DNA of 64,000 nucleotides from Holophagales bacterium. Lineage in GTDB: Bacteria > Acidobacteriota > Thermoanaerobaculia > Multivoradales > Multivoraceae. The position numbers and the translations under genes were made by a program. Shown here one piece after another: positions 22,501-30,145 of this stretch; position 1 is the first letter of the stretch; each line of letters opens with the position of its first letter. The notes below the pieces were generated by a model that saw only the letters and a program-made list of their open reading frames with translations, had not been told where the DNA came from and made no database searches. The DNA lies in the NCBI GenBank assembly GCA_009836625.1, contig VXVC01000004.1, positions 575,037 through 639,036 of the forward strand. The letters run 5' to 3'.

Positions 22501-22727
22501 AACGCAAGGTCGATCGGATCGACCGTGACCGGCTCGGCAGCCGCGAGCTCGAGCGTGAACGCCGGGTGGAGTTCGAACCCGGCCGGCACTCCATCGAGGG
22601 CCGGCCCGTCGAGCATGGGCCCAGCGCAACCGGCGACCGCCAGCACGGCAACCGTCAGCGCCGCGGTGGCCGCCGCGTGCGGCCGGCGACCCGGCGCGCT
22701 ACTCGCCGCCGGCGGATGCTGCGGCAT
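19512..22727 (-). CDS. PVC-type membrane-bound dehydrogenase with HEAT repeats and cytochrome c domain
   Basis: 1071 aa lipoprotein: the signal peptide ends in VLAVAGC (lipobox). The N-terminal six-bladed propeller-type region contains VELMDGDGDGRWDERRLF, LEDTDGDGRADRR and NPQHNVNAIRYGLDNWIYG, typical of TIGR02604-type putative membrane-bound dehydrogenases. The middle is HEAT-like helical repeats (DPDPELRRNAVLAFEEAL). The C-terminus carries one c-type haem site, CARCH (about 953), then the family's C-terminal domain (DILDPNAAVDAAYVNYIVET). It probably oxidises sugars or alcohols at the surface and passes electrons to the haem; the substrate is unknown. The ATG at 22727 overlaps the upstream gene by 29 bases and gives the lipoprotein signal. 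Confidence 0.88.
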   Translation of the reverse strand: MPQHPPAASSAPGRRPHAAATAALTVAVLAVAGCAGPMLDGPALDGVPAGFELHPAFTLELAAAEPVTVDPIDLAFDEKERAFVLELPGYPDMERPARIVELMDGDGDGRWDERRLFADDLGMADSILPWRRGLLVAAPPHIVYLEDTDGDGRADRRDVLLSGFAEGNPQHNVNAIRYGLDNWIYGVNGGNGARVFWPEAPDEVEFPRAEEDIGQDDFRVDFGARRFERTGRGAGGFGMTFGPWGRAFGTHNLDHLSQVVVPRRYLDRLPAAWRNGRLRLAAPPEGGPAELFPIGVRQTRPNHPEQSSRFSAACAVTVYAGGAFGSAGLEEEGLQVFVADPSANVVHRAVVDTAGAAAQAGRGRSGVEFLASTDPLFRPVNLTVGPDGALYVLDMHRGVVEHPEWIPDPMEVELDLYEGDDRGRIYRIVPAGGLPGDLEDFAGFDRSRPEELVLALAGPNRWRRLTAQRLLVEEFGADPPEVVVRDLRERLGDSGRPFGRLHALWTLSGLGELDRESLGAALDDPDPELRRNAVLAFEEALRVDASVGPRMALAPEVVALIGDPDPGVRLQAMLTSGLLLRSEVGGAAALRGAAMSAVVAGFTSAAGEAPLPAEAATEQRWLRLAAVSVLAADPVRSLELLLTSDLTDGVVVERIVSLLPAERLGEVMAGDLVLRVLSDSAGGPSGIGDALLGGLTAAATGGGGRTVDDSALAGPLRRLRQSADDVLSAAAWRLSAALGVEASAVEVQLLDCAGVRAANPAGGLEERLQALALFGLRRHWPTASEDVVPRCREASNSAATRAAEAVPLGGTWLERMGALLGAEQPRPVQRAAMAELASADEETVTAYLVEGWPYLGTDARRDAASYLIRSRSRHGALLDALESGRIGLGEMNFILERRRFLLRSPEPEIRRRARALFDDAGVVTRAEAIEAMRPALEIDGDPERGEGLFLELCARCHRSGGAGSGPGPDLSGIARKSAETLLHDILDPNAAVDAAYVNYIVETTDGEIQSGLLVESAGGGIVLRAAEDLLIEVPAERVREVRSDSLSMMPEELEAGLEPADMADLLAFLSR

Positions 22728-23799
22728 CCGCCTCGAGCAGCCGGGCACCGCGCATGATGTTGCCCATCGCATAGTTGCCTTCGTGGCAGGCGTACTCGTA
22801 GACCCTGCCATCCGCGGCCGGCCACGGGAACTCGCCGCTCCAGGCCGTCTCCCAGGTCGTCGGATCCTCGACCGTGAAGTTGTAGTTCAGCGTGTCTTGG
22901 TCGATGCGGCTGAAGCGCTCCGTGACCTTGAGGCTCTCGCCGGCGCCATACGTGTACATGCCCGGCTTCTTGCCGAAGTTCCTCGTCTCGACGACCAGGG
23001 TGTCGCCCTCCCAGCGTCCCACCGAGTCACCCATGTAGGCCGTCATCCCGTCCGGCAGGTGCTCGCCGCCGATCCGGATGATCCGGGCGTCGTGGATCAT
23101 CTCGGCCAGGATCATCACGTAGTCCTCGGTCTGCACGACCCGCTTCAGGTTGTTGTAGGCGGTCGGCAGCATCGGCGGGCCGGAGGTCGAACCGAATCCG
23201 AGGATGCAGCGCTCGCCCAGAGGCCGCTGCTCGATGTCGTCGTAGGGGCCGGGCCCTTCGTTCTCGAGCCACCACGCGGTGCCGGTGTTTTCGCGGAAGA
23301 GGGTGAAGAAAGCCATCCGCTTCTGTTGCGCCGCCGACGTCATCTCCGGCAGTCGGCCGTTGGGCGGATCAAACACGAGGGACGTGCGGAACCGGCCGTC
23401 GATCGAGATCGAACGGCTGCCGTAGTCGAGCCAGAAGTCGTTGTAGCCGCCGACGTTGCCCGCGGCGCCCGGGGAGCCGTCGCCACCCGGCGGCGGCGCC
23501 TCCCGAGTCGGGTCGCTGGCCTCGAGGTCGGCGGCCCGGCGGTCGGCGACCGTCCGCGCGATCTCCTCTGCCTCTTCCGGCGACAGGTACAGATTGTCCT
23601 CGAACTTGGGATCGCGCTCGAGCGGCGTCAGCGTCGCGATGTCGTAGACGCCGGTGAGATCCGGTCGTCCGCTCGCCGTCCGCGGAATGTCGCCGTCGCC
23701 GTCGGCGGCGGGCAGAGCGGCGGGCAGGAGCAGCGCCGTACTCAACAGCGCGGCGGCGCCCGCAGGGGAAGCGATGCGATATCCGGTCGTCTTCATCAT
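22699..23799 (-). CDS. Secreted protein of unknown function
   Basis: 366 aa. A strong ribosome-binding site (AAGGAGGG) precedes ATGATG; the signal peptide ends near LPAADGDG. The mature start GRPDLTGVYD, a central QTEDYVMILAEMIHDARII and GRWEGDTLVVETRNF are features of a family of secreted proteins common in Acidobacteriota and some Proteobacteria that is annotated only as hypothetical. The C-terminal YEYACHEGNYAM contains one of its two cysteines. I do not recognise an enzyme fold. It overlaps and probably precedes the PVC-type gene in one transcript. Confidence 0.75.
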   Translation of the reverse strand: MMKTTGYRIASPAGAAALLSTALLLPAALPAADGDGDIPRTASGRPDLTGVYDIATLTPLERDPKFEDNLYLSPEEAEEIARTVADRRAADLEASDPTREAPPPGGDGSPGAAGNVGGYNDFWLDYGSRSISIDGRFRTSLVFDPPNGRLPEMTSAAQQKRMAFFTLFRENTGTAWWLENEGPGPYDDIEQRPLGERCILGFGSTSGPPMLPTAYNNLKRVVQTEDYVMILAEMIHDARIIRIGGEHLPDGMTAYMGDSVGRWEGDTLVVETRNFGKKPGMYTYGAGESLKVTERFSRIDQDTLNYNFTVEDPTTWETAWSGEFPWPAADGRVYEYACHEGNYAMGNIMRGARLLEADAAASAGGE

Positions 23800-23927: not shown

Positions 23928-24449
23928 ATGAGAAGCCTCGTGCCAGCCGCAATGCTCGTTAGCGCTGTAACGCTCGCCCCGGCGAGTGCGGGCGCCGCGA
24001 ACCTCGCCGTCGGCGACGCCGCGCCGGACTTCACCCTGCCCAGCACCGACGGCAGCCAGGTGACCCTGTCCTCCTTCGCCGGCCAGAAGAACGTCGTCCT
24101 GGCTTTCTTCCCCAAGGCCTTCACCGCCGGCTGAACGATGGAAATGAAGGGATACCAGGCTGGTATCTCCGACTTCACGGGCAGTGATTCCGTCGTCTTC
24201 GGCATCAGCACCGACGTGCTGGACGAAAACAAGCGGTTCGCCGAGGAACTGGAGCTCGACTTCGCGCTCCTGAGCGACGCCGGCGGCGAAGTCGCCAAGC
24301 AGTACGGCGGCATGATGGAGAGATTCCCCACCGCCGCCAACCGCGTCACCTACGTGGTCGGCAAGGACGGCAGAATCGCCTACATCGGCGAAGGCGCCGA
24401 GGCGATGAATCCGGCCGGCGCGAAGGACGCCTGTCTGGGGCTCGAGTAA
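23928..24449 (+). CDS. Exported peroxiredoxin, putative selenoprotein (Sec69 encoded by UGA)
   Basis: 173 aa if UGA at 24132-24134 is read as selenocysteine. The signal peptide ends near ASAGAA. The AhpC/TSA (Prx) fold starts with [15 protein letters not shown]. The peroxidatic motif of Prx proteins is PxxxTxxC; here it reads PKAFTAG followed by the UGA codon and TMEM, so UGA sits exactly at the catalytic cysteine. The same frame continues for 104 codons of good Prx sequence ([16 protein letters not shown], the conserved arginine in ANRVTYVV, then [10 protein letters not shown]). An 8-bp hairpin with an AGGCU loop begins 14 bases after UGA. Cys169 near the C-terminus is the only cysteine and could be resolving. 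If UGA were a stop, a 68-residue fragment without an active site would result. It reduces peroxides in the envelope (family knowledge). No sel genes are in the window. Confidence 0.85.
24149..24169 (+). promoter_or_regulatory. Bacterial SECIS-like hairpin
   Basis: GGGATACC (24149-24156) pairs with GGTATCTC (24162-24169): eight pairs including one G-U, with apical loop AGGCT (24157-24161). The loop begins 22 bases after UGA, inside the 16-37 base range for bacterial SECIS elements, and carries G at the first two positions of the inner loop; the E. coli fdhF loop is AGGUCU. Folding was done by eye. Confidence 0.75.
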
Positions 24450-24455
24450 CGACGC

Positions 24456-24911
24456 TCAGGCCTGCGCGGCGCTGAGAGCCGCTTCCACGCGGGGCTGGTA
24501 CAGCTCGACCCGGTTCCCGTCTCCGTCCAGGATCCACGCGAACAGGGCGTAGCCCTCGTCGTCCCTGCGCAGCGGCTCGACGCCCCGCTCGTCGAGGTGC
24601 GCCAGCAGGGCATCGAGGTCCCGAACGCGCAGGTTGACCATGAATGGCTGATCGCCGTACATGTCGTCCTGCTCCACGCCCTCGTTGCGGGTCATCCGCG
24701 GCACCGGACGCTTCGCCTTCATGATCGCGAAGGTCGTGTCCATGACCCATGTGGGATCGTCGGGGTCCGCGGCCACGTAGCGCATGTAGAACGCGCCGAA
24801 CTCCTCGCTGCCCTCGAACTGGATGCCGAGGTACTCCGCGTACCAGTCGGCGAGCCGTTTCGGGTCCTCGCTGAAAACGAAGGCGCCGCCGAGGCCGTCG
24901 ATCAGGCTCAA
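24456..24911 (-). CDS. VOC (glyoxalase/bleomycin resistance) superfamily protein
   Basis: 151 aa with two beta-alpha-beta-beta-beta modules: GGAFVFSEDPKRLADWYAEYLG at the start and MVNLRVRDLDALLAHLDERG in the second half, ending in DGDGNRVELYQP, the usual terminal metal-ligand strand. It has no signal peptide. Substrate unknown. The TTG start at 24911 overlaps the stop of the upstream VWFA-related gene (TTGA). It converges with the peroxiredoxin gene, with only 6 bases between the two stops and no terminator visible. Confidence 0.85.
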   Translation of the reverse strand: MSLIDGLGGAFVFSEDPKRLADWYAEYLGIQFEGSEEFGAFYMRYVAADPDDPTWVMDTTFAIMKAKRPVPRMTRNEGVEQDDMYGDQPFMVNLRVRDLDALLAHLDERGVEPLRRDDEGYALFAWILDGDGNRVELYQPRVEAALSAAQA

Positions 24912-26575
24912 GGCGACCCGCCCGTCGTCGTCGGTTCCATCCGCGACCTGACCTGCATCCGAGTGCTGACGGTCTGGCGGCTCACCGGGTCGTGCACCGA
25001 AACAAGGAGGTCATGTGGCCTCCGGCGCAGGGTCAGGACGGTGTCGTAGGGCACGACGGCATCCGGCGCCGGCTGTGTGCTGCCCGCCAGGCTGAGCGGA
25101 ATGACCGGGATCCGCGCCTGCTGGCCGTTGCGGTCGACGACGGCGAAGCGGAGTTCCAGCCGGGCCAGGAACCGGTCCTCGAAGGGAAACACGGGGAAGT
25201 GGCCCACCGGGATGTGGACGGTCACCGGCACTAGCATCTTGCGGCGAAACGGTCCGGTCGGTTCCGGCTCGCCGATCTCCACCACGAGTACCGGCTCGCC
25301 GTAGGTTCGGGTTTCATCGGGGAACAGCAGCCGACCCTGCGTCTCCATGTCGGCTTCGGCCCGGCGCGAGAGATCGACGTAGCCACTGCGCGAACGCACC
25401 CGCAGGCCGGGCCGCCGGAGCTCGACCCGCACGTCGTGCGCCCGATCGTCGCGGCGGTACTCCGGCACGAAGCCGAGCCAGTAGTAGTTCGAGGTGTCTT
25501 CGCTGACCCTCCGGAGCGCACCGAGATTCGCCCCGGCCATGTAGGCCCTGCCGCCCGTCTGCTCGGCGAGCTGCCGCAGGTTCTGCCAGCGCATCAGGCT
25601 CGGCCGAGTCTGCTGATCCACCGGATAGACGGTGTAGCCGAGGACGTTGGCGGTGTCGATGAGCGCGTCGAGGATGCTCCAGTCCGAGCGGAGTCCGATC
25701 CCCTGGCCCGCCAGCCGAAACGAACCGACCGGCCAGTCGCCCGCCAGCAGCAGAAGCACCTTGCGACCTTCCGGCACGTCGAGCGACCGCATCGTCGAAC
25801 TGACGGCGGTGACGGAGAACTCGAGATCCCGCGCCAGGCTTTCGGCCCGCGCTTCGCTCACCGCGCTCGGCAGGTCCATCGCCGCGAACGGCAGGTCGGC
25901 GGCTACGGAGGTCAGGTCTTCGTCGAATCGGGCGCCCGGCGCCAGACCGCCCTCCGCGTTCCGGGCGAAGCGCGACTGGTCGATCAGCCGGGGCGACCTC
26001 AGCAGACCGCCGAAGGAACGGCCGCGTTCGAGTTCCGCCAGCGCGGCGCGGGTCCGCCGGCGGTCCGTCGTGAACGGGCTGAGGACCTGCAGCCGGCGGC
26101 GGCTCTGCACGACGACAGCGACCTGATCGCGCAGGCCGAGGTTCGCCAACTGGTTGGCGAATCCGCGGACCACGGGCCGCCTGAACGTGACGTGGGTGTG
26201 GTCGTCGTCGACGAACAGGAGGTAGTTCGTCGGCACGGAATCGCCGTCGCCGATCGCCGGCGGCGCCTCGCCGTCGCGCGACTCCACCGCGCGGCTCTCC
26301 AGGATCTCCGTGAAGTAGTCCACACCGATCTCGACGCCATCCACGAAGATCCGGAAGTCGTCCGCTTCGAGGCCATGAACCCGGTTGCCCGACCGGTCCT
26401 CGACGACGACCTCCAGATTGACCACCCGGACGTCGATCTCCTCGCCGAAGAAGAGGTCGGGCGGCGGGGTATCAGTCTCTTGGGAAGGAGGCTGCGCTCC
26501 TGCCGGCTGCGCCCAGACGAGGATCAGAGTAGCCGCAAGTACGAGCGAAGACCTACTGAAGCTCGAGTACTCCAC
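24908..26575 (-). CDS. VWFA-related acidobacterial-type exported protein (tandem copy 1)
   Basis: 555 aa. The signal peptide ends near PAGAQ. Features shared by all four copies here: an N-terminal DVRVVNLEVVVEDRxGNRVHGLEADDF strand pair (an immunoglobulin-like region), a VWA-like core with FVDDDHTH in place of a full MIDAS, SPFTTDRRRTRAAL, STMRSLDVPEGRKVLLLLAG, and the C-terminal NYYWLGFVPEYRRDDRAHDV and RSGYVDLSRR. This matches TIGR03436-like proteins, whose function is unknown. GTG start at 26575, no clear ribosome-binding site. It is the third gene of a leftward tandem of three. Confidence 0.85.
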   Translation of the reverse strand: MEYSSFSRSSLVLAATLILVWAQPAGAQPPSQETDTPPPDLFFGEEIDVRVVNLEVVVEDRSGNRVHGLEADDFRIFVDGVEIGVDYFTEILESRAVESRDGEAPPAIGDGDSVPTNYLLFVDDDHTHVTFRRPVVRGFANQLANLGLRDQVAVVVQSRRRLQVLSPFTTDRRRTRAALAELERGRSFGGLLRSPRLIDQSRFARNAEGGLAPGARFDEDLTSVAADLPFAAMDLPSAVSEARAESLARDLEFSVTAVSSTMRSLDVPEGRKVLLLLAGDWPVGSFRLAGQGIGLRSDWSILDALIDTANVLGYTVYPVDQQTRPSLMRWQNLRQLAEQTGGRAYMAGANLGALRRVSEDTSNYYWLGFVPEYRRDDRAHDVRVELRRPGLRVRSRSGYVDLSRRAEADMETQGRLLFPDETRTYGEPVLVVEIGEPEPTGPFRRKMLVPVTVHIPVGHFPVFPFEDRFLARLELRFAVVDRNGQQARIPVIPLSLAGSTQPAPDAVVPYDTVLTLRRRPHDLLVSVHDPVSRQTVSTRMQVRSRMEPTTTGGSP

Positions 26576-26590
26576 GTACAGCCGATTCTG

Positions 26591-28285
26591 TCAGGGATTC
26601 GGCTCGGCCTCCTGTGGCGCTACCCGCATGCGCGTGCTGGCGGTCTCTCGGGACAGTGGATCGTGCACGGTGACCACCAGGTCGTGGGCGAGGCGGCGCA
26701 GCGCGAGCGATGTCCGGTAGAGCACCACCTCGTCCGCGGCCGGCAGGGATGGCCCTCCCAGTCGAATGCGTTGCACAGGAACACCAGTCCGCCGTCCCCA
26801 GCGGTCGACGGCCGCGAAACGGACTTCGAGGTCCTGCACGAACCGCCCGTCATGCGGGACCGCCAGAAACCGGCCCACCGGAAGGTAGACACCGACGGGC
26901 ACGCTCATCATTCGTCGCTTCAGCCTGTCCGTGTCCCCGATCTCCACCAGGAGGGCTCCGCCGGCAGGCTCCGATTCCGCCGGAAACAGGAGCTCGCGCA
27001 GAGCCTCCATATCCGCCTCCGTGCGACGGGAGAGGTCCAGGTAGCCTCGGCGCGAGCGGACGCGAAGGCCGGGCCTCTCCACCTCGATTCGGACATCGTG
27101 GGCCTCGTCGTCGCGCTGGTAGCGAGGCACGAACCCCAGCCAGTAGTAGTGCGACGTGTCCGCGTTCACGATGTCCAGAGCCCCGACGTTGGTCCCGGCC
27201 ATGAACGCCCTGCCGCCCGTGCCGCGGGCAACGTATCTCAGGTTCTGCCAGAGCCATCCGCGAGGCTGGCGCTGCTGGTCCATCGGATAGAGCGTGTAGC
27301 CAAGCAGGTTCGCTGTGTCGATCAGGGCGTCGAGGAGGTGCAGGTCCGTCGACTTCCCGCTACCCAGGCCGGTCCGCCCGAAGTTCCCTGACGGCCAGCT
27401 CCCGGCCAGGAGCAGGAACACCTTTCGCCCGGGCGGCGGTTCGAGAGCTCGCATCGTCGAAACGACCGCGTCCACCGAGAACCGGAGGTCCCTGAAGGCG
27501 ATCTCGGGGCTGCGCAGGCCGTCCAGCCCGAACGAACCGATGCCCTCGGCGTAGACGGCGCCCATCCTGCCGCCGCCGCTGCCGGGCCAACGGGCCGGAA
27601 AGGCCAGAGCGCCGGCGCCAAGATAGGACCCCGTCGGAACCAGCGGCTCGGAGTCGATCGCGCCACGAACCGTCCCGGCCAGCGGAACCGCGCCAGAAGG
27701 GCCGGCGTCCCCGCGATGCCGCTGCCGGGCCCGCAGGAACCCAGCGAATCGACCGCCCTTGTCGAACTCCCGAAGTGCCGCTCGCGTCGCCTCCCGGTCC
27801 GTCGTGAACGGACTCACGATCTCCAGTTGGCGGCCGCTCTGGGCAACGACCGCCACCTGATCGGCGGCAGGCAGGCGGGCAAGCCGATCCCGGAAACCGA
27901 ACAGCACGGGTCGCCGGAACGTCGGATGAGTGTGGTCGTCATCGACGAACAGGACGTAGTTCGTGGCAACGGTCTCGCCCTCTCCAATCGCCGGGGGCGT
28001 TCCTGCGCTGCCGCTGGTGCGAGCGCGCCTGCCGGCTACTTCCGTGAAGTACTCGATGTCCACCTCGTGGCCGTCAACCAGCAGCCGGAAGTCATCGGCC
28101 TCGAGCCCGTGCACCCGGTTGCCCGCGCGGTCCTCGACCACGACCTCCAGGTTGACCACCCGAACGTCGACCTCCTCGCCGAAGAAGGTGTCCGTCGGCT
28201 CCTGCGCCCCGGCGTGCCAACCGAATCCCATGACGGCTGCGAGCGCCGTCCCCAGACCGCGAGCGACTCGACCGTCCGGTCTCAG
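26591..28285 (-). CDS. VWFA-related acidobacterial-type exported protein (tandem copy 2; probable CTG start)
   Basis: About 564 aa. Same architecture as its neighbours: EVDVRVVNLEVVVEDRAGN, FVDDDHTHPTF, STMRALEPPPGRKVFLLLAG, HYYWLGFVPRYQRDD. No in-frame ATG, GTG or TTG lies where a signal peptide would begin. A CTG at 28285 overlaps the upstream stop by 4 bases (CTGA), the same geometry as the other coupled genes, and yields a good signal peptide (RPDGRVARGLGTALAAVMGF, then HAGAQ). The first ATG (28231) would leave only nine residues before the cleavage site. I infer a CTG start with translational coupling; the ATG remains possible. Confidence 0.8.
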   Translation of the reverse strand: MRPDGRVARGLGTALAAVMGFGWHAGAQEPTDTFFGEEVDVRVVNLEVVVEDRAGNRVHGLEADDFRLLVDGHEVDIEYFTEVAGRRARTSGSAGTPPAIGEGETVATNYVLFVDDDHTHPTFRRPVLFGFRDRLARLPAADQVAVVAQSGRQLEIVSPFTTDREATRAALREFDKGGRFAGFLRARQRHRGDAGPSGAVPLAGTVRGAIDSEPLVPTGSYLGAGALAFPARWPGSGGGRMGAVYAEGIGSFGLDGLRSPEIAFRDLRFSVDAVVSTMRALEPPPGRKVFLLLAGSWPSGNFGRTGLGSGKSTDLHLLDALIDTANLLGYTLYPMDQQRQPRGWLWQNLRYVARGTGGRAFMAGTNVGALDIVNADTSHYYWLGFVPRYQRDDEAHDVRIEVERPGLRVRSRRGYLDLSRRTEADMEALRELLFPAESEPAGGALLVEIGDTDRLKRRMMSVPVGVYLPVGRFLAVPHDGRFVQDLEVRFAAVDRWGRRTGVPVQRIRLGGPSLPAADEVVLYRTSLALRRLAHDLVVTVHDPLSRETASTRMRVAPQEAEPNP

Positions 28286-30054
28286 GGCTTCACCTCGATG
28301 CGGGCGCTCGCCGTCTGGCGCGACACGGGATCGTGAACCGTGACTACCAACGAATGCGGCAGGTGTCGCATCTCGACGTCGGCGCGGAACCAGTGCACGC
28401 TGTCCGGGGAAGGAGCGGTGTCGTGACGCAAGTCGAGGGGAATCGCCGGCTGTTCCGCCCGCCAGCCGTCGTGATCGATGGTGGCGAAGCGAACTTCCAA
28501 TCGCTGCACGTACCGGCCGTCCCACGGCACCGCGGTGAAGGTCCCGATGGGGATCGCGACATCCACCGGCACGTTCATTCTCTTCCCGCGCAGGGACCTG
28601 GTCGCGCCGGTTCTCACCCTCAGCCGAGCCACGTCCTCTTCCGTCTGCTGCGGAAAGAGGAGATGTCGCTGAGCCTCCATGTCGGCTTCGGTAGCCCGCG
28701 ACAGGTCCAGATAACCGCGGCGGGCCCGCACCTGGACACCCGGGTGCTGGACCTGGACCTCTATCTCGCGCACGCGATCGTCGCGCCGGTACTCGGGCGC
28801 GAAACCCAGCCAGTAGAAGTTTGACGTGTCGCTGGCGACCAGCTCGAGAGCCGAGATGTTGCTCCCGGCCATGAACGCCATGCCGCCCGTGTCGCGCGCG
28901 ACGTAGCGCAGGTTCTGCCACAACCTCATGTTCGGCGAACCGGTCTGCTGGTCCATCGGGTAGATCGTGTAACCGAGCAGGTTGGCGGTGTCGATCAGAC
29001 CGTCCAGCAATTGGAGATCGGTGCGCAGCCCGGCACCCCGACCGGAGGGCCGGAACTCCCCGGTCGGCCAGTAGCCCGGCAGGAGCAGGAGCACCTTGCG
29101 TCCCTCCGGCGGATCGAGCGCGCGCATCGTCGAGACCACGGCATCGACCGACAGGCTCAGATCCTGTTCAAGGATCGAGGCCCTGGCTTCCTGCTCGAAA
29201 CTGTCGGGCTTCATGTTGGCGAACACCAGGTCGGACGCGACGATCGCTCCCGCGGCTCCCAGGCCCTCGGAAACGACCGCACGGCTGTCGAGCAGCGCCT
29301 CCCCTCCTGCGTTGCGGTCCACGTGTGCTGAGATGCCACCACCTCGAGCCACCAGGTCGGCCGCGGCTTCGGACGCATGGCTCTGCGGCCCGGCATCGCG
29401 GAAGTACGCGGCCGTTCCACCACCGCCTCCGGTGAATGTCCTGAGGATCCGCCGGGAATCCAGGAGGCCTCGAAAACGTCGACCCCGATCGAGCTCCTCG
29501 AGCGCAGCCGACGTGGCACCGCGATCCGTCGTGAACGGACTCAGGAGCGCCAGGCGCCCGTCGTTCTGGACGACCACAGCCACACGGTCGGCCGGATCCA
29601 GCAGGCCCAGCCTGTCCGCAAAACCCCGCAACACCGGCCGTCTCAGCGCCCGCAGCGAGCGCTCATCGTCTACGAAGAGGACGTAATTCGTGGCCACGAC
29701 TTCGCCATCGCCCACGGCCGGAGGCACGTCGGCGCCAGACGTCGGTCGCGCACGTCCCCGCGAGACCTCGGTGAAGTACTCGACCTCGACCTCCTCACCG
29801 TCGACCAGCACCAGGAAATCGTCCGCCGCGAGCCCTGACACGCGGTCACCCTCACCGTCCTCGACGACGACCTCGAGATTGACAACACGGACGTCGATTT
29901 CCTCGCCGAAAGCGACCTCAGATGAGGACAGGGCGTCCGGCTCCTGGCCTGCCGCGGGATACCCGAACGCCAGGGCGGCCACCAGGAGGGTCAGTAGGCA
30001 CCAACAGTAACTCCGTCTTCCGTCGGGCCTTGAACAGAGGTTCCCGATCGTCAT
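28282..30054 (-). CDS. VWFA-related acidobacterial-type exported protein (tandem copy 3)
   Basis: 590 aa and first gene of the tandem. The ATG at 30054 is preceded by GAGGAG at good spacing; an alternative upstream GTG (30087) has none. Signal peptide ends near PAAGQ. Core motifs: EIDVRVVNLEVVVEDGEGD, FVDDERSLRAL, STMRALDPPEGRKVLLLLPG, NFYWLGFAPEYRRDDRV, RRGYLDLSR. It has an extra glycine-rich insertion of about 60 residues (TFTGGGGGTAAYF onwards) between the VWA core halves. A possible -10 box TATGGT lies at 30076-30081 on this strand. Divergent from the amidase gene. Confidence 0.87.
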   Translation of the reverse strand: MTIGNLCSRPDGRRSYCWCLLTLLVAALAFGYPAAGQEPDALSSSEVAFGEEIDVRVVNLEVVVEDGEGDRVSGLAADDFLVLVDGEEVEVEYFTEVSRGRARPTSGADVPPAVGDGEVVATNYVLFVDDERSLRALRRPVLRGFADRLGLLDPADRVAVVVQNDGRLALLSPFTTDRGATSAALEELDRGRRFRGLLDSRRILRTFTGGGGGTAAYFRDAGPQSHASEAAADLVARGGGISAHVDRNAGGEALLDSRAVVSEGLGAAGAIVASDLVFANMKPDSFEQEARASILEQDLSLSVDAVVSTMRALDPPEGRKVLLLLPGYWPTGEFRPSGRGAGLRTDLQLLDGLIDTANLLGYTIYPMDQQTGSPNMRLWQNLRYVARDTGGMAFMAGSNISALELVASDTSNFYWLGFAPEYRRDDRVREIEVQVQHPGVQVRARRGYLDLSRATEADMEAQRHLLFPQQTEEDVARLRVRTGATRSLRGKRMNVPVDVAIPIGTFTAVPWDGRYVQRLEVRFATIDHDGWRAEQPAIPLDLRHDTAPSPDSVHWFRADVEMRHLPHSLVVTVHDPVSRQTASARIEVKP

Positions 30055-30145
30055 GCCTGTCTCCTCTGAGGCGACACCATAGTCCACGTCCTGATTCGAT
30101 CACGCCAGTGTGTTGCAAGCGGGGTGCCACCAGGTCTGCCGCTGC

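What the first reader, a model, noticed from the sequence alone, without database searches (positions are those of the whole stretch)
23928..24449. Exported peroxiredoxin with in-frame UGA at the peroxidatic cysteine and a SECIS-like hairpin
Seen: the frame runs through a single TGA (24132-24134) located exactly where the Prx motif PxxxTxxC requires cysteine (PKAFTAG-UGA). Prx sequence continues to a normal stop, and an 8-bp stem with AGGCU loop starts 14 bases later, loop 22 bases from UGA. Known: bacterial SECIS elements lie just after UGA, 16-37 bases to the loop, with a G-rich small loop, and Sec-containing Prx proteins exist. Inference: this is a selenoprotein that an automatic gene call would split in two. 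A signal peptide would make it an exported selenoprotein, and Cys169 is its only cysteine.
Basis: partly seen in the sequence, partly recalled or inferred. Interest (0 to 1): 0.9.

Follow-up and report, generated by a model that had tools for sequence, protein, structure and literature searches.

The report
Exported selenium peroxidase with C-terminal cysteine
A bacterium of the phylum Acidobacteriota carries a gene whose internal 'stop' codon very probably encodes selenocysteine at the active site of an exported peroxide-destroying enzyme, and relatives with the same design, including one conserved cysteine near the protein's end, occur in many other members of the phylum.

Summary
Frame 23928-24449 (+) crosses one UGA (24132-24134) exactly at the peroxidatic position of a peroxiredoxin. 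A hairpin that meets published bacterial SECIS constraints starts 14 bases later. The genome has selA, selB, tRNA-Sec and selD. All 21 genus genomes searched carry the UGA at this codon. Across 57 related rows with a Tyr codon in the hairpin, its third base follows its pairing partner. Best reading: an exported Sec/Cys peroxiredoxin on an AhpE/Bcp-like fold, Cys169 being the likely resolving residue (inferred). Against: hairpins are weak in most distant relatives (2 of 38 reach -7.5 kcal/mol). Sec-containing peroxiredoxin is an established family (PMC13188914), so this is a new variant of a known kind. Selenium incorporation, activity and the Sec-Cys distance could not be tested.

The parts
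23928..24449 (+). Selenoprotein gene: exported AhpE/Bcp-like peroxiredoxin, 173 residues, UGA read as Sec69, stop TAA 24447-24449
   Evidence: (PF00578 E 4.7e-33, PF08534 E 2.7e-22)
23928..23996 (+). Probable signal peptide, residues 1-23 (hydrophobic core, AxA-type end); cleavage site approximate
   Evidence: Hydropathy rule: 19 of 19 genus rows pass; N-terminal 20 residues of the model have poor confidence. No trained predictor available
24111..24134 (+). Peroxidatic motif P62-K-A-F-T66-A-G-U69 (PxxxTxxU)
24132..24134 (+). UGA codon for Sec69 at the peroxidatic position
   Evidence: Same codon in 21 of 21 genus genomes; same alignment column as the Cys of CP-Cys homologues
24149..24169 (+). 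SECIS-like hairpin: 8-bp stem with loop AGGCU (or 9 bp with loop GGC), 22 (or 23) nt after UGA
   Evidence: covariation; synonymous codons
24342..24344 (+). Arg139, invariant; presumed catalytic Arg of peroxiredoxins (role recalled)
   Evidence: Invariant in 17 aligned sequences
24432..24434 (+). Cys169, only cysteine, putative resolving residue in the C-terminal helix (162-172)
   Evidence: C-terminal Cys in 64 of 94 Sec rows, never together with a Sec+4 Cys; helix

Best explanation
The gene encodes an exported selenoperoxiredoxin. During translation SelB reads the hairpin just after UGA 24132-24134 and delivers Sec-tRNA-Sec, so a full 173-residue protein is made instead of a 68-residue fragment. 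The signal peptide sends it out of the cytoplasm. In the AhpE/Bcp-like fold, Sec69 is held by Pro62, Thr66 and Arg139 and reduces H2O2 or organic hydroperoxides, becoming a selenenic acid. The single C-terminal Cys169 then most likely attacks it to form a selenenylsulfide, within one chain or between two, which a thiol reductant outside the cytoplasm reduces. SHOWN by sequence comparison: UGA at the peroxidatic column, conserved frame after it, hairpin with covariation, complete Sec machinery, conserved C-terminal Cys. INFERRED: Sec insertion itself, export, peroxidase activity, and the resolving role of Cys169. The confidence below is for the whole statement; for the selenoprotein part alone I put about 0.94.
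For: UGA at the peroxidatic codon: 21 of 21 genus genomes. Machinery in the own genome: SelB 326.5 bits (356.6 with its neighbour piece in the frame), SelA 444.8, SelD 256.3, tRNA-Sec 74.1 bits with anticodon TCA. Class: SelB over cut-off in 131 of 148 genomes, tRNA-Sec in 129 of 148; genus 21 of 21 and 19 of 21. Hairpin: all four published bSECIS constraints (PMC13188914, passage) are met here: loop 5 nt, stem 8 bp, G in the first two loop positions, spacing 22 nt, energy -10.1. Best perfect hairpin averages -6.5 kcal/mol in 94 Sec rows and -3.7 in 31 Cys rows. Codons 76-80 show no synonymous variation in 20 genus rows, where 54 of 88 invariant-residue degenerate codons vary. Covariation: in 57 Tyr rows, bases +21/+29 are C-G in 24, U-A in 28, U-G in 1, C-A (no pair) in 4. 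Cys169: 64 of 94 Sec rows have a Cys at Sec+97 to +105 and no other Cys from Sec-45 to the end, 16 have Sec+4 Cys, 0 have both. One homologue from the phylum of L080 (titled Planctomycetota), L178, has the C-terminal Cys together with a peroxidatic Cys.
Against: The single fold is modest (z -1.21) and Rfam has no match. Of 38 C-terminal-Cys rows from the phylum search only 2 have a perfect hairpin of -7.5 kcal/mol or better, mean -3.2, no better than the Cys rows, although 22 of 38 keep a GGC or GUC loop at +24; none of 7 f10 rows reaches it and they use a different fold. Codons 91-94 are also synonymously frozen in the genus, outside the hairpin. tRNA-Sec was not found in 2 of 21 genus genomes under stricter filters. 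No coordinates, so the Sec69-Cys169 distance is unknown. The AhpE chains are titled 1-Cys peroxiredoxin. Rows are related and hand-picked, so counts are not independent. No experiment.
Confidence: 0.6

Rival explanations
1. Selenoprotein as above, but Cys169 is not the resolving residue: the enzyme works as a 1-Sec peroxiredoxin (AhpE style) reduced directly by an outside thiol, and Cys169 has another role such as a dimer disulfide.
For: Best fold match by Z is AhpE, titled a 1-Cys peroxiredoxin, Z 24.7, rmsd 1.6 over 149 residues, 36% identity. Distance to Sec69 not measurable here.
Against: The C-terminal Cys and the Sec+4 Cys replace each other: 64 against 16 of 94, none with both. A CP-Cys homologue also has it (L178).
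Confidence: 0.33
2. UGA terminates translation and a second protein is restarted at AUG 24138, giving two separate polypeptides.
For: An AUG lies 3 bases after UGA and opens a 103-codon frame; the codon is ATG in 19 of 19 genus rows counted.
Against: 0 of 45 C-terminal-Cys rows, and 6 of 75 Sec rows of every kind, outside the genus have ATG, GTG or TTG there. The break would split the active site of one Pfam domain. The hairpin covariation and the Sec machinery would be unexplained.
Confidence: 0.03
3. Decayed gene or sequencing error: UGA is a nonsense mutation or a miscalled TGC/TGT.
For: Only that an isolated in-frame UGA can arise this way.
Against: 21 of 21 genus genomes carry it, purifying selection continues after it, and phylum relatives of about 40-50% identity share it.
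Confidence: 0.01
4. UGA is read as another amino acid (Cys or Trp) by natural suppression or an altered code.
For: None found.
Against: A complete Sec pathway is present. Of 340 UGA-bridged frames in the window only 4 look coding on both sides, so UGA behaves as a stop elsewhere in the window.
Confidence: 0.02

Closest known systems
Sec-containing peroxiredoxin family (PF00578, PxxxTxxU; first described from Eubacterium acidaminophilum)
   Same: Sec in place of the peroxidatic Cys in PxxxTxxU; listed in the selenoprotein table of PMC13188914 above the group 'Predicted with high confidence', with the 2001 E. acidaminophilum paper as reference (passages)
   Different: The NCBIfam PrxU model (that this is the E. 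acidaminophilum enzyme is recalled) scores 45.4 against a cut-off of 270. Here there is a probable signal peptide and a lone C-terminal Cys
AhpE of Mycobacterium tuberculosis (1xvw, 1xxu, 4xih)
   Same: Highest Z (24.7, 36% identity); has the Ala-Phe dyad of PxAF(T/S)xxC that PMC5302317 links to its AhpE group (passage)
   Different: Sec at the peroxidatic site; Gly instead of the Val/Ile that the same passage describes just before it; probable signal peptide; extra C-terminal Cys169
PrxQ/BCP (Sulfolobus Bcp1, Bcp4; M. tuberculosis BcpB)
   Same: Foldseek's two best E-values are Bcp4 and Bcp1, and Z 23.9-24.1 is tied with AhpE; PRK09437 is the best NCBIfam model
   Different: 87.5 bits against the curated cut-off of 140; Lys, not Cys, at +5, where 13 of 31 CP-Cys rows have Cys
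Related subfamily WFPKAFTGG(U/C)TxEC in the same phylum
   Same: Exported by the same rule (8 of 8 rows tested), same FTGGU motif, hairpin loop at +22
   Different: Cys at +4, no C-terminal Cys; both Sec (16) and Cys (8) forms among 110 rows
Prx5-type atypical 2-Cys peroxiredoxins (recalled, not tested)
   Same: Resolving Cys in the last helix, about 100 residues after the peroxidatic residue (recalled)
   Different: Different subfamily and peroxidatic residue; no comparison made here

Membership tests
Bacterial selenoprotein (SelB/SECIS dependent) | In-frame UGA where homologues have Cys | tested here: met
   In the alignment of 69 rows the column holds Sec in 45 and Cys in 24; two of the 24, L117 and L118, have their Sec three columns earlier
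Bacterial selenoprotein (SelB/SECIS dependent) | bSECIS: loop 3-9 nt, stem 4-16 bp, G in first two loop positions, 16-37 nt from UGA, energy <= -7.5 (PMC13188914) | tested here: met
   Window: loop AGGCU, 8 bp, spacing 22, -10.1 kcal/mol for the 9-bp form. Not met on energy by 36 of 38 phylum relatives with the simple measure
Bacterial selenoprotein (SelB/SECIS dependent) | SelA, SelB, tRNA-Sec, SelD in the genome | tested here: met
   all over cut-off
Bacterial selenoprotein (SelB/SECIS dependent) | Selenium found in the protein | not testable with these tools
   Needs 75Se labelling or mass spectrometry
Peroxiredoxin | AhpC-TSA/Redoxin domain with PxxxTxx(C/U) and conserved Arg | tested here: met
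   PF00578 E 4.7e-33; P62, T66, residue 69 and R139 invariant in 17 sequences
AhpE subfamily | Nearest structural neighbours | tested here: inconclusive
   The 7 best entries by Z are AhpE (24.3-24.7) but Bcp1, BcpB and Bcp4 are tied within 1 and Bcp4/Bcp1 lead by Foldseek E-value
AhpE subfamily | Active-site marks in PMC5302317: Ala-Phe dyad in PxAF(T/S)xxC, Val/Ile before the peroxidatic residue | tested here: inconclusive
   Dyad present (PKAFTAGU); residue before Sec is Gly
AhpE subfamily | No resolving Cys (1-Cys) | tested here: inconclusive
   Cys169 is present and conserved; whether it resolves is untested
PrxQ/BCP | Curated score cut-off of PRK09437 | tested here: not met
   87.5 against 140 bits
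PrxU (NF040737) | Curated score cut-off | tested here: not met
   45.4 against 270 bits
Exported protein | N-terminal signal peptide | tested here: inconclusive
   Hydropathy rule met by 19 of 19 genus rows, against 6 of 22 Cys homologues. No trained predictor

The most novel reading that the evidence does not exclude
Acidobacteriota use a widespread subfamily of exported selenoperoxiredoxins in which Sec is the peroxidatic residue and a lone cysteine in the C-terminal helix of an AhpE/Bcp-like fold is the resolving residue, forming a selenenylsulfide outside the cytoplasm. In respiring members this would be a selenium-based envelope defence against peroxide, contrary to the view that aerobic bacteria rarely keep selenoproteins.
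Probability: 0.5. Interest if true: 0.62.

Novelty: new variant of a known kind. Interest (0 to 1): 0.5.

Why it matters
Standard gene calling splits such genes at UGA (one search shows it for this one), so a family of exported peroxidases is easy to miss. A review states that aerobic bacteria rarely retain selenoproteins (PMC13188914, passage), yet 20 of 21 genus genomes have a heme-copper oxidase subunit I match, which suggests but does not prove aerobic life, and 4 of 13 AhpC-TSA matches of the own genome carry an in-frame UGA. The either/or pattern of Sec+4 Cys and C-terminal Cys gives a testable prediction about where the resolving residue sits in one protein family.

Tried and rejected
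Rfam found nothing. tRNA search of the selB locus L009 found no selC there; it lies elsewhere. A second tRNA-Sec-like hit over cut-off, L018, is tRNA-Ser by ARAGORN. Reinitiation at AUG 24138 was rejected. My first hairpin contrast (47 Sec rows -8.9, 22 Cys rows -3.8 kcal/mol) was made before the phylum rows were fetched; with all rows it shrinks to -6.5 (94) against -3.7 (31). One origin for all C-terminal-Cys rows: supported in a tree of 70 rows (97/94, with contig-end row L055 inside), but the quick tree of 110 rows needs 3 changes and has weak deep branches, so I do not claim it. 'C-terminal Cys only with Sec' held for the 110 rows, but L178 (CP-Cys) breaks it; L183 of the same search has Sec with Cys at +7, +86 and +104 and fits neither pattern. 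That search covered 294 genomes of the phylum of L080's genome, 34 with a match; 12 of its 37 listed matches were fetched. Sampling: class rows are 30 given automatically plus 40 picked by hand; phylum rows are 16 new ones given automatically plus 40 picked by hand, so proportions are not frequencies. Rows dropped before counts: L034 (near-identical to own; kept), L064-L078 (same genes as G rows), L081 (frame), L095 (duplicate); in the trees also L117, L118, L100 and 12 close genus rows, and L054. L054 loses its C-terminal end; L055 ends at a contig edge. Literature searches listed no paper whose title or abstract start describes an exported or C-terminal-Cys Sec-Prx; I saw listings, and passages only of PMC13188914, PMC9312934, PMC12013277, PMC5302317 and PMC1794560, so such a paper may exist. 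Selenoproteins in Acidobacteriota as such are known: PMC12013277 lists one organism of the phylum with 3 (passage). A search for the genus name gave only unrelated papers among the five listed. I also withdrew a clear AhpE assignment (ties with Bcp) and a statement that all 16 phylum rows look exported, which was not scored.

Full report
What is there. The window lies in a 4.3 Mb genome, 98.75% complete. Named near relatives are metagenome-assembled genomes titled Holophagales, Thermoanaerobaculia, Vicinamibacteraceae, Acidobacteria or Acidobacteriota bacterium, and Candidatus Multivorans thiocomprendens, the last placed in Acidobacteriota, class Thermoanaerobaculia. L075 of that species matches the genus row of G083 in coordinates, so the genus may be Candidatus Multivorans (inference). 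On the + strand, 23928-24449 encodes 173 residues with one in-frame UGA at 24132-24134. With the UGA read through, Pfam gives AhpC-TSA E 4.7e-33 (residues 28-153) and Redoxin E 2.7e-22. The UGA stands where the peroxidatic cysteine belongs: [10 protein letters not shown].

Is the UGA decoded as selenocysteine? The genome has selA (C12:184105, 444.8 bits), selB (C6:78374, 326.5 bits), tRNA-Sec (C14:71306, 74.1 bits; anticodon TCA) and selD (C10:26515, 256.3 bits). Among 148 genomes of the class, SelB passes its cut-off in 131 and tRNA-Sec in 129; in the genus it is 21 of 21 and 19 of 21. The best match in each of the 21 genus genomes carries one TGA, and in all 21 it is the same codon. After the UGA the sequence still evolves as protein: dN/dS over codons 70-165 is 0.04-0.57 in 10 chosen comparisons with the own row. 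Reinitiation at AUG 24138 is not conserved: outside the genus 0 of 45 C-terminal-Cys rows, and 6 of 75 Sec rows of every kind, have ATG, GTG or TTG there.

The hairpin. Alone it is modest: z -1.21 over 50 nt, and Rfam has no match. It satisfies the four bSECIS constraints quoted in PMC13188914 (passage). In 20 genus rows the five codons 76-80, all with invariant residues, never vary synonymously, while 54 of 88 invariant-residue degenerate codons do; codons 91-94, outside the hairpin, are frozen too, so this is support rather than proof. In the f17 rows the hairpin has an unrelated sequence, GUCGCUC[CGUGA]GAGCGGC, at nearly the same distance (loop at +22 against +24). Across 67 rows of the C-terminal-Cys kind (L034, L054 and L055 included), 57 have Tyr at Sec+7; the third base of its codon (+21) and its partner (+29) are C-G in 24, U-A in 28, U-G in 1 and C-A in 4. 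On 42 distinct sequences the counts are 11, 26, 1 and 4 (Fisher p 3e-6, not corrected for kinship). The C-G form is found in family f1 and again in L172 and L174 of f36. Against this: the other 10 rows have Phe or Leu there, the 7 f10 rows do not keep these pairs, and only 2 of 38 phylum rows and 0 of 7 f10 rows have a perfect hairpin of -7.5 kcal/mol or better. Still, 22 of 38 phylum rows keep a GGC or GUC loop at +24. By kind the mean best hairpin is -9.5 (19 genus rows), -8.7 (16 Sec+4 rows), -4.4 (7 f10), -3.2 (38 phylum) and -3.7 (31 Cys rows).

The protein. AlphaFold2 on 17 sequences gives mean pLDDT 88.2, poor only near the N-terminus. By Z the best 7 of 50 listed entries are AhpE of M. 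tuberculosis (best Z 24.7, rmsd 1.6, 149 residues, 36% identity), with Bcp1, BcpB and Bcp4 tied within 1; by Foldseek E-value Bcp4 and Bcp1 come first, and by sequence the best PDB chain is 2ywn/4g2e of Sulfolobus tokodaii. So 'AhpE/Bcp-like' is as far as the data go. PMC5302317 (passage) gives an Ala-Phe dyad in PxAF(T/S)xxC and Val/Ile before the peroxidatic residue as marks of its AhpE group; here the dyad is present but the residue is Gly. The 13 NCBIfam families listed all score under their cut-offs (best PRK09437, 87.5 of 140; PrxU 45.4 of 270). An N-terminal hydrophobic stretch meets a simple rule in 19 of 19 genus rows, 8 of 8 Sec+4 rows and 6 of 7 f10 rows, against 0 of 10 'other Sec' rows and 6 of 22 Cys rows; phylum rows were not scored.

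The lone cysteine. Of 94 fetched rows that encode Sec, 64 have a Cys 97-105 residues after it (28 at +99, 24 at +100), and none of these has another Cys from Sec-45 to the end. Sixteen others have Cys at Sec+4; none has both. In a 110-row set the labels are Sec/C-terminal Cys 52, Sec/+4 16, Cys/+5 13, Cys/+36 8, Cys/+4 8, and 13 others. Such replacement is what one expects of a resolving residue. A homologue from the phylum of L080 (titled Planctomycetota), L178, has a peroxidatic Cys and a C-terminal ...PAGALDAC 98 residues on, so the pairing is not tied to Sec. The careful 70-row tree puts 30 C-terminal-Cys rows plus contig-end row L055 on one side of a branch (97/94); the larger quick tree does not hold them together.

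How it probably works. Sec69 attacks the peroxide; Cys169 in the last helix resolves the selenenic acid as a selenenylsulfide; a reductant outside the cytoplasm closes the cycle. Only the sequence facts are shown. I could not measure the Sec69-Cys169 distance because no model coordinates are laid in the Python box.

Place among known things. Sec-containing peroxiredoxins with PxxxTxxU are in the catalogues of selenoproteins (PMC13188914, PMC9312934; passages), and an Acidobacteriota organism with 3 selenoproteins is in PMC12013277 (passage). So this is a new variant of a known kind. What may be new is the exported form with a lone C-terminal Cys and its breadth: of 396 phylum genomes, 126 have a match of any kind at E <= 1e-24; the 16 best matches outside the genus all have UGA and the C-terminal Cys, and 22 of 40 further hand-picked rows do. 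A heme-copper oxidase subunit I match in 20 of 21 genus genomes suggests oxygen respiration, which makes the find less expected given the statement that aerobic bacteria rarely retain selenoproteins (PMC13188914, passage).

Surroundings. The minus-strand gene upstream (22699-23799) is found in 14 of 18 named loci and the VOC-like gene downstream (24456-24911; the name is my reading of the sequence) in 15 of 18; L079-L081, distant homologues, lack both, and L077 lacks the upstream match. Both genes are on the opposite strand, so the peroxiredoxin is probably transcribed alone; I saw no partner reductant next to it.

Noticed in passing
L004 (G000:C3:742842-743282): Another Prx-like gene of the own genome with a signal-like start and UGA in a GGWUPYC motif.
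   Followed up: partly
L003/L028 (G000:C12:588991-589413, - strand): Prx-like gene of the own genome with a signal-like start and UGA in a VWUPYC motif.
   Followed up: partly
L027 (G000:C12:537588-537917, - strand): Prx-like gene with UGA in WAPYUGC; by motif it resembles NCBIfam's WAxxUGC family (name seen; not scanned).
   Followed up: no
L178, around 1501-1962: CP-Cys homologue with the same C-terminal Cys, 98 residues apart: a Cys twin of the window protein's arrangement.
   Followed up: partly
L183: Sec-type homologue (AFTPVU) with Cys at +7, +86 and +104, fitting neither cysteine pattern.
   Followed up: no
L138, L140-L144, L146, L147 and L149, L152-L156, L175, L177: Related subfamily WFPKAFTGG(U/C)TxEC with Cys at +4 occurs in both Sec and Cys forms, a good case for Sec/Cys exchange.
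   Followed up: partly
window 24908-30087, - strand: Three neighbouring frames share 'VDVRVVNLEVVVED'-like stretches (24908-26575, 26591-28921, 28282-30087), apparently tandem paralogues.
   Followed up: no
L054: One genus genome (G071) loses the C-terminal end of the gene, perhaps by a frame change or an assembly error.
   Followed up: no
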